From Anaerolineales bacterium (GTDB lineage: Bacteria > Chloroflexota > Anaerolineae > Anaerolineales > VGOW01): a stretch of 6,217 nucleotides of DNA. Below, piece by piece: positions 1-6,197 of this stretch (positions are counted from its first letter, which is position 1; each line of letters begins with the position of its first letter). Position numbers and translations under genes: made by a program. The stretch spans positions 1 through 6,217 of the forward strand of contig CAKKQG010000092.1 in NCBI GenBank assembly GCA_919901875.1, given 5' to 3'. The notes below the pieces were generated by a model. The model made no database searches. It saw only the letters and a list, made by a program, of their open reading frames with translations, and had not been told where the DNA came from.

Positions 1-875
1 GGATACGCCACTGCCTGACCATTGAGATCAACGGTCAACACGTATGCCACTGCCGGTAACACGTTAGGAGTCTTCGGTCCGCGATAGAGAAACGGCGACG
101 AGTTCACATCGTCGTAACCCGCATACGGATTCGATCCATATCCGCGACCGTAACCTGTATCCTTCGACAACACTTTGCCATTGGGGTAGGTCGCTTTGAA
201 TTGATCCCAAGAGATGATGGAGACCGCGCGGAAAACAAGTTTGCTGCCGGTGAGTTCTCCGGCAATCGCCTCGCCTGTTCCTTGCTGCCACCACGTTTCG
301 GTTTGACGGTCATACATCACCAAGTTGCTGTAACGCAAACGTCCTGTCGTGCCGAAGTCGAGCGTCTGTCCTTTAACTATTCGCTCGAAGGCGATAGCGG
401 TATTGCATAACGGACAAAAGGTAATGATCACGGGGACGCCGCCAACCGCATCATTAACAATCTCGTGCCACATCAAAATTTGAATCGGGTAAGCGCGCGC
501 GTCACCGTTGATCTCAAACAAGATGATCGGTTCAACCGGCTTCAACCATTCGTTTGCTTCTTTCACTGTGACAAACTTTGGATTCGAGAGTGCGGGGATT
601 CCATCTTTGGGTGGACCACCGGAAAGAATCTCGCTATATGGAATAGTGTGTTTACTGAAATCTGTTTTGAATTCACGCTGGGCGTTAGAGGGCGGCGGAT
701 CGTCAGTGGTGATCAGAGGTTTGGGTGTCGCGGCATCGGCTGTGCCGATGGCAGCGACGGCGGGAGTTGTGGGTGATGAGGCAGAAATAGGTAATGAAGG
801 TAGAGGAGTGGGCGTGGCGGCGCACGCTGAAACGATCAAGGTGAAGAAGGTGAATAGGTAGAGGTGAGTTTTCAT
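1..875 (-). CDS. DUF3179-type lipoprotein, C-terminus cut off by the window edge
   Basis: The frame is open from ATG at 875 to the left edge, giving 291 complete codons with no stop. The N-terminus is a lipoprotein signal: hydrophobic residues 5-16, then Val-Ser-Ala-Cys with Cys18 as the lipidation site. An Ala/Thr/Pro/Ser-rich linker follows to about residue 65. The domain from about 95 onward matches the DUF3179 family: Ala-Arg-Ala-Tyr-Pro (126-130), Trp-His-Glu-Ile-Val-Asn-Asp (136-142), a Cys-Pro-Leu-Cys motif (154-157), Val-Met-Tyr-Asp-Arg-Gln-Thr (186-192) and Ile-Ser-Trp (221-223). The function of the family is not established; the protein should sit on the outer face of the cytoplasmic membrane. 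AAGGAG lies 5 bases before the ATG, and the start overlaps the upstream gene's stop as ATGA, which suggests translational coupling. From memory, related proteins are somewhat longer, so a C-terminal part probably lies off the edge. The family call is confident; the role is unknown. Confidence 0.88.
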   Translation of the reverse strand, partial: MKTHLYLFTFFTLIVSACAATPTPLPSLPISASSPTTPAVAAIGTADAATPKPLITTDDPPPSNAQREFKTDFSKHTIPYSEILSGGPPKDGIPALSNPKFVTVKEANEWLKPVEPIILFEINGDARAYPIQILMWHEIVNDAVGGVPVIITFCPLCNTAIAFERIVKGQTLDFGTTGRLRYSNLVMYDRQTETWWQQGTGEAIAGELTGSKLVFRAVSIISWDQFKATYPNGKVLSKDTGYGRGYGSNPYAGYDDVNSSPFLYRGPKTPNVLPAVAYVLTVDLNGQAVAY

Positions 876-1975: not shown

Positions 1976-2323
1976 ATGCCAGATCCAGATGAAGTTTTAC
2001 AGCACCTGCTCAAGCAAGAATCGCTCACACCCGAAGAGGCTAAGCAAGGATTGGTCTCTTGTTTTTTGGTTACCAATCGCCGCTTCGTCGAGCGTCGCTT
2101 AGGACCTCGCCCTCCAGCCGAAATTGATGCCGCTACTCAGAAACTTATTGATTCGGTCTTGGAGCGACATTTATCAGGGAAGCGAGTTACTTTGGTAGAT
2201 CTAAAGCAAGTGCGGCAAGTGTTGATAGAGCAGTGCAGTTTTGAATCGGAGCCCGACCTGCTGGCGATGCACGTGCAGATGCTTGATGATCTGTTTGCGC
2301 GCGTTAAGTTAGGCGCGGATTAA
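1976..2323 (+). CDS. small helical protein, unknown function
   Basis: A 115-residue soluble protein starting at ATG 1976, with AGGAG 9 bases upstream. I do not recognise the family. It is rich in charged and Leu residues and looks almost wholly alpha-helical: helices are likely at about 4-15, 18-42 (containing Asn-Arg-Arg-Phe-Val-Glu-Arg-Arg), 48-66, 72-88 and 92-112. There is no signal peptide or membrane segment. Cys29 and Cys87 are isolated, not a Cys-x-x-Cys motif. The stop TAA is 13 bases before the next ATG and the ribosome site of that gene lies between them, so the two are almost certainly co-transcribed. Its position as first gene after the inverted repeat makes a regulatory or adaptor role possible, but no helix-turn-helix is evident. 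Codon use and the good ribosome site support it as a real gene. Confidence 0.72.
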   Translation: MPDPDEVLQHLLKQESLTPEEAKQGLVSCFLVTNRRFVERRLGPRPPAEIDAATQKLIDSVLERHLSGKRVTLVDLKQVRQVLIEQCSFESEPDLLAMHVQMLDDLFARVKLGAD

Positions 2324-2336
2324 AAGGAGAATTTCT

Positions 2337-2633
2337 ATGCTTATCAAAAACGATGTTCAACCTGATGGAATCCGCGAGGTGAGGTTCACCTTGCCGCCTG
2401 AAATCAACGCTCAAACTGCCTGTCTGTGTGGCGACTTCAACGACTGGGATGAAACTCTCCACCCAATGAAGCGCGCCGAAGATGGTAGTTTTTCTTTGAC
2501 CGTCAAACTTCAAGCGGGTCAGCACTATCAATTTCGATATTTTGTTGATCAAACACGTTGGGAAAACGATTGGGCGGCGGACCGCTATATTCCTAATCTT
2601 TTTGGTAGCGATAACTCTGTCGTGGAAGTATGA
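2337..2633 (+). CDS. stand-alone CBM48 / isoamylase early-set (AMPK glycogen-binding type) domain protein
   Basis: A 98-residue protein starting at ATG 2337, with AGGAG 7 bases before it. The whole chain is one beta-sandwich early-set domain. Visible features are Val-Arg-Phe-Thr-Leu-Pro-Pro (15-21), Cys-Gly-Asp-Phe-Asn-Asp-Trp (31-37), Met-Lys-Arg and Asp-Gly-Ser-Phe (44-52), Tyr-Gln-Phe-Arg-Tyr-Phe-Val-Asp (64-71) and a C-terminal Trp-Glu-Asn-Asp-Trp-Ala-Ala-Asp (75-82) leading into Asn-Ser-Val-Val-Glu-Val. In the family such domains bind alpha-1,4 glucans such as glycogen and usually sit in front of a branching or debranching enzyme or on AMP-kinase beta subunits; no catalytic domain is attached here. 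Whether this lone copy binds glucan or serves as a protein interaction module is unknown. It sits between the unknown helical protein and ccdA, 58 bases before the latter. It ends in TGA, showing ordinary use of UGA as a stop in this genome. Confidence 0.86.
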   Translation: MLIKNDVQPDGIREVRFTLPPEINAQTACLCGDFNDWDETLHPMKRAEDGSFSLTVKLQAGQHYQFRYFVDQTRWENDWAADRYIPNLFGSDNSVVEV

Positions 2634-2691
2634 GGCAACTTCATCACGGACTCGGAAAGAAATAGATTGTTGAGAATAGGAGAAAGTAAAA

Positions 2692-3465
2692 GTGGATCCA
2701 AATAACATCACGTTTGGTTTAGCATTTGTGGCAGGGCTGGTGTCGTTTTTATCTCCCTGCGTATTGTCCCTCGTGCCGGCTTATATAGGATATTTGAGCA
2801 GCCGCTTGGTGACTGCCAATGGTGACGTTGTCGAGAACCGTTGGGAAACGATCACACACGGTGTGGCGTTTGTGCTTGGTTTCAGCTTAGTCTTTGTGAT
2901 CCTCGGTGTTGCCGCCAGCGCGTTCGGAGCATTTCTCTTTGAGGCACGCAGCCTGCTCACCCGCGTCGGCGGCGTCATCATCATTATCTTTGGCTTGCAC
3001 ACTTTAGGTGTGATCCATCTGCCATTTTTGGATTATGACCTTCGTCGTCAGCAAATGCCAGATCGCAAACTGGGTTACTTGTCCTCGTCATTGATGGGCG
3101 TGTTCTTCTCAGCAGGTTGGTCGCCCTGCGTGGGTCCTGTGCTGGGCGCGGTGCTCACCCTTGCCTTGGGCGCCGAAAATATCAGTCGAGGGGCGATCTT
3201 GCTTTCAGCTTATTCGTTAGGATTGGGGATTCCTTTCCTGTTAGCGGCGGCTGGAGTGGGTCAAGTGTCACAGCTGATCAATCGTTATCGAAAATATATG
3301 CGCTATATGTCGTTCATCGCCGGACTGTTGTTAATTGGAATTGGTGTTTTGCTATTGACTGATTCGTTACAGCTGCTGGCGCGCTATGCCTTCATTTCGG
3401 ATTTTCAAACCGCGCTCGACGAGAATCTGGTGTCCTTTTGGCAACGCTTTGCGGGCGGAAAATAA
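2692..3465 (+). CDS. ccdA: CcdA/DsbD-like transmembrane thiol-disulfide electron carrier
   Basis: A 257-residue integral membrane protein. It starts at GTG 2692, with AGGAG (2678-2682) 9 bases upstream. It has the CcdA pattern of two repeats of about three helices, each with one redox Cys: Ser-Phe-Leu-Ser-Pro-Cys-Val (18-24, Cys23) and Ala-Gly-Trp-Ser-Pro-Cys-Val-Gly-Pro (141-149, Cys146). Membrane segments by eye are about 8-35, 54-82, 88-108, 130-160, 168-192 and 205-226. In the family this protein takes electrons from cytoplasmic thioredoxin and passes them across the membrane to extracytoplasmic thioredoxin-like partners, for cytochrome c maturation or disulfide repair. No cytochrome c assembly genes are seen here. 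The DsbA-like gene 29 bases downstream is the obvious partner. The length and both Cys-Pro-flanked motifs are normal for the family. Confidence 0.95.
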   Translation: MDPNNITFGLAFVAGLVSFLSPCVLSLVPAYIGYLSSRLVTANGDVVENRWETITHGVAFVLGFSLVFVILGVAASAFGAFLFEARSLLTRVGGVIIIIFGLHTLGVIHLPFLDYDLRRQQMPDRKLGYLSSSLMGVFFSAGWSPCVGPVLGAVLTLALGAENISRGAILLSAYSLGLGIPFLLAAAGVGQVSQLINRYRKYMRYMSFIAGLLLIGIGVLLLTDSLQLLARYAFISDFQTALDENLVSFWQRFAGGK

Positions 3466-3494
3466 AATCGGGCGCGATAAATTTAGAGAGAGAT

Positions 3495-4214
3495 ATGACC
3501 CAAAACAAGCAACCACAAAAAAATATTTCAAAGAAACAAACTGTCCGTGAGCAACGGGTAATCGCCCGCCAACGACAACAATGGGTGTGGGTAGGAATCG
3601 GTTTGCTGGCTCTCGTGTTTGCTGGCGCATTTATTTTCTGGCCTCGTCCCACAGCCGAACCCGTTGATGCCACACGGTTAACGGATGATCCTTCACTGGG
3701 TTCAGTGGCGGCTAAAGTCACCATTGTTGAATACGGCGATTTTGGTTGTTCCGCTTGTCAAGCCTGGCATCGCGCGGGTATCGTTGAACAAATCCGTGCC
3801 AAGTATGGTGATAAAGTTCGTTTTGTCTGGCGCGACTTTCCGGTGATCACGCCTCAGTCTCCTAAAGCCGCCGAAGCCGCGCAGTGTGCATATGATCAAG
3901 GCAAGTTTTGGGAGTACCACGATTTACTTTATGATCGAGCGCCAGCAATTGGTCTGAGTGATCTTAAGAGTTATGCCAGTCAGTTGGGGTTAGACACAAC
4001 GAAGTTTAACCAGTGTTTGGATTCGGGTCAGTATCAAGCGACGGTTGACCGCGATAAGCAAGAGGCATTTGCGCGCGGGTTTCGTGGCACACCCTCTTTT
4101 TTGATAAATGATAAACCGTTGGCGGGTCCACCTTCACTTCAATACTTACAGAATTTGATCGATTCAATTCTTGGAATAGGCGGTGATTTTTTTCAAGGGA
4201 TCGGGGTAGATTGA
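3495..4214 (+). CDS. membrane-anchored DsbA-family thioredoxin-fold protein
   Basis: A 239-residue protein read from ATG 3495, preceded by GAGAGAG. The frame is open back to an ATG at 3438, but that start would overlap ccdA and add 19 non-conserved residues. A Lys/Gln/Arg-rich cytoplasmic tail (1-29) is followed by a single membrane helix (about 31-49), so the catalytic domain should lie outside. The thioredoxin-like domain begins with Val-Thr-Ile-Val-Glu-Tyr-Gly-Asp-Phe-Gly and carries the active site Cys85-Ser-Ala-Cys88. The cis-proline loop is Arg-Gly-Thr-Pro-Ser-Phe (197-202, Pro200). Cys131 and Cys174 may form a second disulfide. The helical insertion between them (Ala-Glu-Ala-Ala-Gln-Cys-Ala-Tyr onward) is typical of the Thioredoxin_4/DsbA-like family. 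It may oxidise, isomerise or reduce substrate thiols; pairing with CcdA favours a reduced or isomerase state, which is inference. It ends in TGA, followed one base later by TAG. Confidence 0.92.
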   Translation: MTQNKQPQKNISKKQTVREQRVIARQRQQWVWVGIGLLALVFAGAFIFWPRPTAEPVDATRLTDDPSLGSVAAKVTIVEYGDFGCSACQAWHRAGIVEQIRAKYGDKVRFVWRDFPVITPQSPKAAEAAQCAYDQGKFWEYHDLLYDRAPAIGLSDLKSYASQLGLDTTKFNQCLDSGQYQATVDRDKQEAFARGFRGTPSFLINDKPLAGPPSLQYLQNLIDSILGIGGDFFQGIGVD

Positions 4215-4272
4215 TAGTCGCCTTTAAAACGGCGGAGATGGTATAACGATATATGACTTTTCCTGATGGCTT

Positions 4273-4279
4273 GAGGTGA
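4273..4279 (+). promoter_or_regulatory. ribosome binding site fixing the selenoprotein start
   Basis: GAGGTGA matches the anti-Shine-Dalgarno complement over seven bases and lies 5 bases before ATG 4285. An in-frame GTG at 4276 falls inside this site and so cannot be the start it serves. ATG 4285 is therefore preferred, which removes three residues from the longest open frame. Confidence 0.75.
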
Positions 4280-4284
4280 CAAAT

Positions 4285-5268
4285 ATGACTGATAAACCAA
4301 CGAGTGAATCCTTTGAGGAATTTAAGAACTCCTTCTCTTATGGTTCACGTTCCGACATGAATTTTAAATTTCTAAAGAATTTGTTGGATGAAGATGCCTC
4401 CAGATTTTTTAGGGACTTACTATGGAAATTGGGCGATGCAATTGACGACGGTAATTTTGAACACATTATCGAGCATATCTTTCAAACGCAAGCGTTGGCT
4501 TATGCCGGTCCAGGTCGCTATATCTACGAGACCGGACCCTTTACGCCGGTAACCAAACCGCTTTCGGAATTGCGTTTGGCTTTGTTTACTTCCAGTGGTC
4601 ATTTTGTTGAAGGAGATGACCCGAAGCCTTTTGGGATTGAAAATTTATCACAGCAAGAAGCCGAAGCGCGAATCAATGACTTCCTGAAAGAAGAACCGCA
4701 ACTCTCGGTGATCCCATTGGATACTCCCGAAGATAAATTGCGGGTGCGCCATGGTGGTTATGATATTCGAGGGGCGCTCGCCGACCCGAATGTTAATTTC
4801 CCTCTGACACGGTTGAAAGAATTACAACGTGAGGGACGGTTGAGTCAATTGCATTCTCTTGCTTATTCATTTGTAGGCGCGTGCGCTCAGTTACGTTTGT
4901 TGAATCACACTGCCCCTGCCTGGGCGCGCCTACTTAAAGAACAACAGATTGAGGGAGTGCTGTTAGTACCCGTCTGACCAGTATGCCATGTGTCCGTGGG
5001 ACACTTAGCGCGGGTATTAGAAGAAGCGGGTTTGGCAACAGTTGTCATCGGCACAAGTGCTTTTCGTGATCGACTGGCGGCAATGCATTTGCCTCGAACA
5101 GTTATCACAAGACATCCAATAGGGCGACCACTCGGTGCGCCAAATGATCGGGAAACTCAGCGCAAAGTGATACTCGCCGCCCTTGATCTACTCGAGTCGG
5201 CGAGCCAAAGCGGGATGATAGTTGACTTACCGGGTTCTTACCGTCTTTTGTCTCATCAAGACGTGTAG
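4285..5268 (+). CDS. selenoprotein: glycine/sarcosine/betaine reductase selenoprotein B (GrdB)-like protein, with UGA-encoded selenocysteine at residue 231
   Basis: Read with TGA 4975-4977 as selenocysteine, the frame runs from ATG 4285 to TAG 5268 and encodes 327 residues. Residues 1-75 form a charged helical N-terminal region. The family core follows: Lys-Pro-Leu-Ser-Glu-Leu-Arg-Leu-Ala-Leu (91-100), Ser-Ser-Gly-His-Phe (103-107), Ile-Pro-Leu-Asp-Thr-Pro (143-148), Arg-His-Gly-Gly-Tyr-Asp (155-160), Asp-Pro-Asn-Val-Asn-Phe-Pro-Leu (167-174), Tyr-Ser-Phe-Val-Gly-Ala (194-199), then Val-Pro-Val-Sec231-Pro-Val-Cys234-His. After that come Gly-Arg-Pro-Leu-Gly-Ala-Pro and Leu-Asp-Leu-Leu-Glu-Ser. 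As I recall the family, non-seleno members have Cys at 231, giving a Cys/Sec-x-x-Cys redox site. True GrdB acts in clostridial amino-acid reductases; no grdA or grdC partner is here, so the substrate is unknown. It follows the DsbA-like gene after 70 bases. Ordinary calling would give false ORFs 4276-4977 and 4990-5268. A nonsense mutation of a Cys codon is the main alternative, but the SECIS-like hairpin argues against it. Confidence 0.9.
4975..5017 (+). promoter_or_regulatory. bacterial SECIS element with its selenocysteine UGA codon
   Basis: The UGA is at 4975-4977. Twelve bases later GTGTCC (4990-4995) pairs perfectly with GGACAC (4999-5004) around the loop GTG (4996-4998). Counting the U of UGA as 1, the loop G and U are at 22 and 23, close to the loop G and U that SelB recognises in E. 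coli fdhF mRNA. A 5-bp lower stem, AUGCC (4983-4987) with GGUAU (5013-5017, one G-U pair), can extend it across an asymmetric internal loop. A short upper stem, small apical loop and G as first loop base match the known bacterial SECIS pattern. The hairpin itself encodes Val-Ser-Val-Gly-His. Confidence 0.85.
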
Positions 5269-5815: not shown

Positions 5816-6115
5816 TTAGGTGAAATCATCTCGCAAGTAATGCAAACGAATCTGAACCCGCCTGTGCCCTAACGCTTCGGCAAGTTTAATCTGCGACTCG
5901 GCTTCGGTATGCCCTTCACTCAGCAAGCGGCGATATAACTCGTTGGTATATGTCGCCCGAAAATCATGCGTGCGTGTATGCTCAATGCCAAGAGATTTGC
6001 AAGCCTGCGAAAGCGCTCGTTGATAAGGTCGTTCCAACTTCTTCCGATCACGAAACACTCGTCCGTTGTCAACCCTCACGTCAACTGATCGATCAGAATT
6101 CGGCAAACTGATCGC
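5816..6115 (-). pseudogene. tyrosine recombinase / phage integrase, C-terminal fragment
   Basis: The open frame runs from just below an in-frame TAG (6116-6118) to TAA (5816-5818). The first possible start is TTG at 6106, giving 96 residues; no good ribosome site precedes it. The sequence is the C-terminal catalytic part of a tyrosine recombinase. Thr-His-Asp-Phe-Arg (46-50) is the His-x-x-Arg box (His47, Arg50), and Leu-Gly-His-Arg-Arg (79-83) supplies the next conserved His. Tyr90 in Leu-His-Tyr-Leu is the nucleophile, nine positions after His81 as usual in the family. The N-terminal DNA-binding part and the first catalytic Arg region are missing, and no continuation appears in the other minus frames up to 6160. 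It is therefore an inactive remnant of an integrated element. The insertion between the Arg50 box and His81 is charged and helical. Confidence 0.82.
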
Positions 6116-6162: not shown

Positions 6163-6197
6163 AAAAAGGCTACTTCGACTCGTAATCGAAGTAGCCT
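6163..6197 (-). terminator. intrinsic terminator of a gene beyond the right edge
   Basis: Reading the minus strand, GGCTACTTCGA (6196-6186) pairs perfectly with TCGAAGTAGCC (6178-6168) around a 7-base loop and is followed at once by TTTTT (6167-6163). An A-T pair can extend the stem by one. Eleven perfect pairs plus the T-run make this a classic Rho-independent terminator. The gene it ends must lie to the right of 6217, since only about 20 bases remain there. It also shields the recombinase fragment from that gene's transcription. Confidence 0.88.

What the first reader, a model, noticed from the sequence alone, without database searches (positions are those of the whole stretch)
4285..5268. 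A hidden selenoprotein: one in-frame TGA at the redox position of a GrdB-like protein
The sequence shows two open frames in the same phase, 4285-4974 and 4978-5268, separated only by TGA at 4975-4977. Joined, they make one full-length protein of the glycine/sarcosine/betaine reductase selenoprotein B-like family. The TGA sits in Val-Pro-Val-X-Pro-Val-Cys-His, where family members known to me have Cys or Sec. UGA is used as a normal stop by other genes in the window (2631-2633, 4212-4214, 872-874), so a changed genetic code is unlikely. Ordinary annotation would report two hypothetical fragments.
Basis: partly seen in the sequence, partly recalled or inferred. Interest (0 to 1): 0.93.

Follow-up and report, generated by a model that had tools for sequence, protein, structure and literature searches.

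The report
Truncated selenoprotein gene in Chloroflexota
A bacterial gene is interrupted by a UGA codon that its family keeps in place and very likely reads as the rare amino acid selenocysteine; 113 of the 120 closest stored proteins listed end just before that codon, so databases probably hold them without their predicted redox centre, while the way selenocysteine would be inserted is ordinary and the substrate is unknown.

Summary
Confirmed. 4285-5268 is one frame interrupted only by TGA 4975-4977 (residue 231 of 327). All 16 distinct long-type genes that my searches reached carry TGA in that column; five full-length database homologues carry Cys there; 113 of 120 listed homologues end exactly before it. 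A hairpin 18 nt after the TGA meets published bacterial SECIS limits, covaries over 28 sequences (6 of 8 pairs changed on both sides) and exceeds all 2000 synonymous-codon controls. selA, selB and selD lie in the window's own, 64% complete genome; selC was not found there but is clear in the 16 other carrier records, 15 of them distinct.

The protein is nearer PrdB than GrdB but below the cut-offs for both. The partner family of those reductases was found in 0 of 17 carriers, with a working positive control. It forms its own clade (100/100) with an extra N-terminal region of about 85 residues. My reading: a stand-alone UxxC selenol-thiol reductase; the function is inferred. The kind is known since 2005 at least; I found no name for this subfamily in the libraries and papers searched.

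The parts
4285..5268 (+). selenoprotein gene (327 codons read through TGA, stop TAG 5266-5268): long-type PF07355 / PrdB-like protein
4975..4977 (+). in-frame TGA, predicted selenocysteine 231 of a U-P-V-C (UxxC) redox motif
   Evidence: Sec/Cys column in all 17 rows of A2; TGA in all 16 distinct long-type loci reached
4990..5004 (+). predicted bacterial SECIS hairpin GTGTCC(GTG)GGACAC: 6-bp stem, 3-nt loop beginning with G, 18 nt after the TGA
   Evidence: limits from PMC13188914 (passage)
4285..4542 (+). N-terminal extension (about residues 1-86, FKNSFxYGSRSDxNFKFLK motif) outside the PF07355 and PrdB matches
   Evidence: profile matches begin at residues 88 and 86; conserved in A2
3495..4214 (+). 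DsbA-like thioredoxin-fold protein (FGCSACQ), directly upstream, Cys form; the tool's ORF starts at TTG 3438
   Evidence: PF13462, PF01323; NF041057 at 105 bits, below its cut-off of 190
2692..3465 (+). CcdA/DsbD-type membrane protein, same strand upstream
   Evidence: PF02683
2337..2633 (+). CBM48-like small protein, same strand
   Evidence: PF02922; 56% homologue about 5 kb from the short-type gene of a congener, L115
1976..2323 (+). 115-aa protein without family; a 47% homologue lies directly upstream of a deiodinase-like gene in another genome (L112)
3..875 (-). DUF3179 protein (cut by the contig end); DUF3179 also lies near the gene in L037, L038, L111

Best explanation
The gene at 4285-5268 carries one conserved in-frame TGA followed 18 nt later by a covarying hairpin, and the TGA is very likely read as selenocysteine, giving a 327-residue PrdB-like protein predicted to act as a reductase through a UxxC centre. 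Shown by calls: the frame, the Sec/Cys column, the hairpin with covariation, selA/selB/selD in the same genome, selC in the other carriers, no pyruvoyl-subunit partner found. Inferred: SelB binds the hairpin and delivers Sec-tRNA; Sec231 attacks a small oxidised or polarised substrate, Cys234 resolves the selenyl-sulfide, and a thioredoxin, glutaredoxin or flavoprotein disulfide reductase drawing on NADPH resets the centre, so that it works as a stand-alone selenol-thiol reductase rather than as part of D-proline or glycine reductase. I put selenocysteine at about 0.96 and the stand-alone reductase reading at about 0.45; the substrate is unknown.
For: TGA in the same column in 17 long-type loci, 16 distinct; Cys in five full-length relatives, which fall in two places inside the clade. 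113 of 120 listed homologues end at the residue before that column. Hairpin: the 14 long-type loci all have a G-first 3-nt loop at 18 nt, with fold energies of -7.8 to -20.9 kcal/mol for the 47 nt after the TGA; mean contiguous stem 7.08 in 13 distinct genes against 1.56 in synonymous versions, 0 of 2000 as high; covariation 0.520 against at most 0.130 when slid, 0 of 500 shuffles, 6 of 8 pairs with two-sided changes. Of 47 distinct non-DC-type TGA motif sites in the loci held, 46 have at least 6 of 8 pairs; the 47th is a chance motif elsewhere in L088. Three distant homologues without TGA have stems of 0, 0 and 2 bp there. Machinery. PF09338 found in 0 of 17 carriers and in 6 of 7 positive controls. 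Thiol-redox or NADPH genes in the held flanks of 8 of 15 long-type loci.
Against: selC was not found in the window's own assembly. Folded alone, the window's hairpin region is not more stable than shuffles (z 0.13 and -0.35), and 1456 of 20000 synonymous versions of the window reach its 6-bp stem. Within the 13 long-type sequences alone covariation is weak (50 of 500 shuffles as high). Two distant homologues have Gly and Ser in the column. The 12 DC-type sites lack this hairpin position and have another. No neighbour gene is shared by more than 4 of 15 loci except as a fragment, and no chance expectation for the neighbourhoods was computed. G398, which does hold PF09338, also holds a related PF07355-type gene with a partial N-terminal match (L069). 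No solved structure matches convincingly, so the reductase mechanism rests on family analogy.
Confidence: 0.9

Rival explanations
1. It is the PrdB subunit of a genuine D-proline reductase (or the B subunit of a glycine-type reductase) in an amino-acid fermenting bacterium.
For: Best NCBIfam match is TIGR04483 PrdB, 106.7 bits over residues 86-320; same UxxC motif as listed for PrdB in PMC2398784 (passage). The Cys relative P0015 just passes the general selenoprotein B model TIGR01918 (65.9 of 65.45).
Against: The PrdB cut-off is 300 bits; the window's protein and seven long- or short-type relatives score 105-142. PF09338, which by my recall covers GrdE and the PrdA proprotein, was found in 0 of 17 carriers and in 6 of 7 control genomes. 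No such gene was seen among the window's genes or the neighbours given to Pfam.
Confidence: 0.04
2. The TGA is a real stop: the 230-residue product is the functional protein and the rest is a decayed or separate frame, or the TGA is a sequencing error in one assembly.
For: 113 of 120 listed stored homologues end at that point.
Against: TGA, not TAA or TAG, in 16 of 16 distinct long-type loci from different assemblies; frame, UxxC and residues up to about 319 conserved after it; dN/dS 0.06-0.14 after it in the 6 of 10 pairs where it could be computed; hairpin.
Confidence: 0.02
3. UGA is read as another amino acid here (changed code or leaky stop).
For: The frame is open only if TGA is sense.
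Against: TGA ends other genes of the window; Cys replaces the residue in relatives; selA, selB, selD present; SECIS-type hairpin.
Confidence: 0.01
4. The selenoprotein belongs to a disulfide relay with the CcdA and DsbA-like genes just upstream, which pass electrons across the membrane.
For: Five same-strand genes in a row from 1976 to 5268, with CcdA and DsbA-like directly upstream.
Against: In the held flanks of the other 14 long-type loci, tblastn at E 1e-4 found no relative of this CcdA and a DsbA relative in one only, about 7 kb away (flanks are short in several). No signal sequence is visible by eye in the selenoprotein's first residues.
Confidence: 0.15

Closest known systems
Proline reductase PrdB (TIGR04483) and the 'PrdB' selenoproteins of ocean metagenomes (pfam07355, UxxC; PMC1088965, PMC2398784)
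   Same: Same superfamily and UxxC motif, Sec with Cys homologues, SECIS-type hairpin after UGA
   Different: 107 of 300 bits; extra N-terminal region of about 85 residues; no PrdA-type partner gene found in carriers; own clade. Whether the ocean sequences include this long type could not be checked, as their sequences were not at hand
Glycine/betaine/sarcosine reductase selenoprotein B (GrdB, GrdF, GrdH)
   Same: The C-terminal part of PF07355 aligns; UxxC
   Different: Window protein 45-50 bits against cut-offs of 65-800; U-P-V-C instead of the U-G-T seen in L036; no GrdE-type partner found
Deiodinase-like selenoproteins of bacteria (PF00837; NF038285)
   Same: Own TGA in GSFTUPYCG; lies 22-24 bases upstream in L044 and L045 and one ORF upstream in L041
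   Different: A different family; absent from the window and not found in its 64% complete genome

Membership tests
bacterial selenoprotein gene | in-frame TGA with conserved coding sequence on both sides | tested here: met
bacterial selenoprotein gene | Cys in the same column in homologues | tested here: met
   P0007, P0012, P0013, P0014, P0015
bacterial selenoprotein gene | SECIS hairpin: loop 3-9 nt, stem 4-16 bp, G in first two loop positions, 16-37 nt from UGA, energy at most -7.5 kcal/mol (PMC13188914, passage) | tested here: met
   window: loop GTG, stem 6, spacing 18, -11.4 kcal/mol for the 39 nt after the TGA
bacterial selenoprotein gene | selA, selB, selD in the genome | tested here: met
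   selA and selB matched in part but over cut-off, selD over nearly its whole length
bacterial selenoprotein gene | selC (tRNA-Sec) in the genome | tested here: inconclusive
   not found in the 64% complete own genome; 63-73 bits in the 16 other carrier records, 15 distinct
bacterial selenoprotein gene | selenium in the protein | not testable with these tools
   needs mass spectrometry or 75Se labelling
PF07355 (GRDB) superfamily | Pfam gathering score 22 bits | tested here: met
   44.7 bits
PrdB (TIGR04483) | curated cut-off 300 bits | tested here: not met
   106.7 bits; seven relatives 105-142
D-proline or glycine-type reductase | pyruvoyl/proprotein partner subunit, PF09338 (that it covers PrdA is recalled) | tested here: not met
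   0 of 17 carriers, several of them incomplete assemblies; control rings in 6 of 7
GrdB-type selenoprotein B (TIGR01918) | curated cut-off 65.45 bits | tested here: not met
   window protein 47.2 bits; P0007 47.4, P0012 59.4, L043 45.4, but P0015 65.9 just passes
D-proline reductase | thiol-dependent reduction of D-proline | not testable with these tools
   needs enzyme assay

The most novel reading that the evidence does not exclude
A stand-alone branch of the proline/glycine reductase superfamily has left amino-acid fermentation and works with a deiodinase-like selenoprotein as a two-selenium reductive module fed by NADPH, removing a heteroatom or halogen from a small molecule, and databases have hidden it by cutting nearly every member at its active site.
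Probability: 0.2. Interest if true: 0.7.

Novelty: new variant of a known kind. Interest (0 to 1): 0.42.

Why it matters
Among the 120 best stored relatives listed, 113 end one residue before the predicted catalytic residue, so a function or structure assigned to those 230-residue proteins would concern an inactive piece. The subfamily separates the PrdB/GrdB fold from its pyruvoyl partner and so makes testable what the Sec-bearing subunit can do alone. In two loci it sits directly behind, and in a third one ORF away from, a second, deiodinase-like selenoprotein whose bacterial function is also unknown, which gives both a testable partner.

Full report
Observation. The window is contig C92 of an unnamed assembly (2.63 Mb, 484 contigs, 63.67% complete). 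Frames 4285-4974 and 4978-5268 share a phase and are split only by TGA 4975-4977. TGA ends other ORFs of the window. That the assembly belongs to Chloroflexota is inferred from named relatives.

The column. The order search found relatives in 30 of 151 genomes; 31 of its 35 matches hold exactly one TGA, three none, one two TGA and a TAG. Of 41 loci read through (L001, L008-L047), 38 have TGA at the motif (37 U-P-x-C; L036 U-G-T); L031, L034, L035 do not (L035 is cut before the site). The long type, with the N-terminal FKNSF-YGSRSD region, is L001, L008, L009, L037-L047 (14 loci; L008 and L039 are one gene) plus L065-L067: 17 loci, 16 distinct, all with TGA. L043 is titled SAR324, the other named ones Chloroflexota, Chloroflexi or classes in it. 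Full-length database relatives P0007, P0012, P0013, P0014, P0015 have Cys there. Of the 120 best of 1712 homologues, 113 end at query position 230, 5 have Cys, P0046 ends at 226 and P0051 runs differently (replacing a faulty count). Which stop codon ends those stored proteins cannot be seen from protein records.

The hairpin. In the window: GTGTCC(GTG)GGACAC at 4990-5004, loop 18 nt after TGA, -11.4 kcal/mol. This meets the limits in the Fig. 2 legend of PMC13188914 (passage). The 14 long-type loci have a G-first 3-nt loop at 18 nt with stems of 5-8 bp. Against synonymous versions with the family's codon usage, the 13 distinct genes average 7.08 contiguous pairs versus 1.56 (highest 3.62 in 2000), and ten short-type SVG genes 7.1 versus 1.67; related sequences are not independent. 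Long-type sequences alone covary little. Twenty-one sequences give 0.358; 28 give 0.520 with 6 of 8 pairs changed on both sides, 0 of 500 shuffles as high and at most 0.130 when slid. I chose the 28 from the loci held, leaving out duplicates, near copies, some minus-strand loci and the DC type. As a check on that choice, one search took every distinct TGA motif site in L001, L008-L047 and L065-L093: 59, of which 12 are of the U-P-D-C type, with another predicted hairpin (loop at 23 nt, or 20 nt in L013 and L026). Of the other 47, 46 have at least 6 of the 8 pairs; the exception is a chance motif in L088, whose true site is counted apart. Three distant homologues without TGA have Cys, Gly and Ser in the column and stems of 0, 0 and 2 bp. 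Against: alone, the region is no more stable than shuffles, and the window's own 6-bp stem arises in 1456 of 20000 synonymous versions.

Machinery. selB 318.9 bits, selA 371.1, selD 365.3 (with its own TGA) in the window's genome, all over cut-off, selA and selB matched in part. selC: best 41 bits, below 47. In the rows listed, scores of 63 bits and more stand apart from a lower group at 53 bits and less, which still crosses Rfam's 47 (five of 14 control genomes do). All other 16 of 17 carrier records reach 63.2-73.3 bits; G120 and G525 share coordinates and are one assembly. Congeners G001-G004 reach 72.1-76.

Family. PF07355 44.7 bits. NCBIfam: PrdB 106.7 of 300; GrdH 50.2, GrdF 47.8, selenoprotein B subfamily 47.2 of 65.45, GrdB 45.2. 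P0007, P0012, P0015, L043, L010, L019, L013 score 105-142 for PrdB; P0015 just passes TIGR01918 (65.9 of 65.45). A tree of 40 rows gives one long-type clade of 18 rows at 100/100 with a stem of 1.36 changes per column; the Cys forms lie in two places in it, one of them at an unresolved fork, and the tool warns that long branches meet at this stem. A profile of the long type matched 100 of 400 genomes of the phylum; four (G000, G381, G420, G353) match from profile positions 2-6 at over 290 bits, and G398 has a gene with a partial N-terminal match (27-119) that lacks the FKNSF motif (L069).

Partners. PF09338 was found in 0 of 17 carriers; none of the 14 named controls rang, so I tested seven more genomes of the phylum with other PF07355-type matches (one, G026, seen to be GrdB type): six rang, G511 did not, and G000, G120, G045 were again empty. 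That PF09338 covers PrdA is recalled.

Neighbourhood. Fifteen of the 16 distinct long-type loci were compared (window, L037, L038, L040-L047, L108-L111; L067 left out for its short flanks), with 0.1 to about 10 kb held per side. Deiodinase-like gene in 3 (L044 and L045, 22-24 bases upstream; L041, one ORF away); G6PD in 4 (L038, L041, L044, L045) and by eye a C-terminal piece in L040; FAD disulfide reductase in 4 (L041, L044, L045, L111); thioredoxin-reductase-type flavoprotein in 3 (L037 with glutaredoxin, L038, L110 with a response regulator); DUF3179 in 4 (window, L037, L038, L111); DsbA-like in 2 (window, L111). At least one thiol or NADPH gene in 8 of 15, not counting the L040 piece (Pfam run on representatives only). 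The deiodinase-like proteins of L041, L044, L045 carry their own TGA in GSFTUPYCG, with weak T4_deiodinase and NF038285 matches. A congener's short-type gene (L010/L115) also has a deiodinase-like gene beside it, convergent. L112-L114 were fetched because they hold deiodinase-like genes and are not counted. L044 and L045 have a transporter with an OpuAC-type binding protein downstream (L044 tested). No chance expectation was computed.

Structure. AlphaFold2 on A2 (Cys for Sec): mean pLDDT 85.5, pTM 0.87, alternating strands and helices after residue 95. No close solved structure found.

Literature. 'Proline reductase PrdB', UxxC, was counted 42 times in the Sargasso Sea and 235 times in ocean samples (PMC1088965, PMC2398784; passages). 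PrdB and GrdB are listed among selenoprotein families in PMC9312934, PMC13188914 and PMC5029168 (passages); PMC1794560 counts three selenoproteins in Chloroflexi (passages). The operon section of PMC13188914 (read whole) names no PrdB-deiodinase pair. Searches listed no paper whose title names this subfamily; PMC9751293 and PMC9696928 were seen in listings only. The library lacks most subscription papers.

Verdict. Selenocysteine at 231 is as well supported as sequence can make it. The enzyme's role is inferred: a UxxC selenol-thiol reductase without the pyruvoyl partner.

Noticed in passing
L041:3600-4277, L044:4286-4975, L045:1717-2406: Deiodinase-like selenoprotein genes with their own in-frame TGA (GSFTUPYCG) lie upstream of the PrdB-like gene: 22 and 24 bases away in L044 and L045, about 720 bases and one ORF away in L041; a possible two-selenoprotein unit.
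   Followed up: partly
L010:2212-2900 (-): The deiodinase-like gene next to the congener's short-type gene matches in two pieces that overlap in different frames near the Sec site, so it may be broken or misassembled there.
   Followed up: no
window 3438-4214: The DsbA-like protein with FGCSACQ is a Cys relative of the Rcas_1661 (seleno)lipoprotein family (105 bits, cut-off 190).
   Followed up: no
L011-L014, L017, L018, L022-L027, L032: Relatives with U-P-D-C have a different predicted hairpin, typically CGTGCC(CGTGYT)GGCACG, with the loop 23 nt after TGA in 11 of these 13 loci: a second SECIS layout in one superfamily.
   Followed up: partly
L031, L034: Distant homologues have Gly or Ser in the Sec column and no hairpin: possible loss of the redox residue.
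   Followed up: no
G000:C142 (L059): The selD gene of the same genome also carries an in-frame TGA, so it is probably a selenoprotein too.
   Followed up: no
window 5816-6106 (-) and 6168-6196: A 96-residue ORF that looks by eye like the C-terminal part of a tyrosine recombinase, and a perfect 11-bp inverted repeat near the contig end (by eye).
   Followed up: no
L044:6512-9815, L045:3867-7163: Transporter genes with an OpuAC-type (glycine betaine) binding protein downstream of the selenoprotein gene in both loci; a hint at a substrate, but the two are close relatives.
   Followed up: partly
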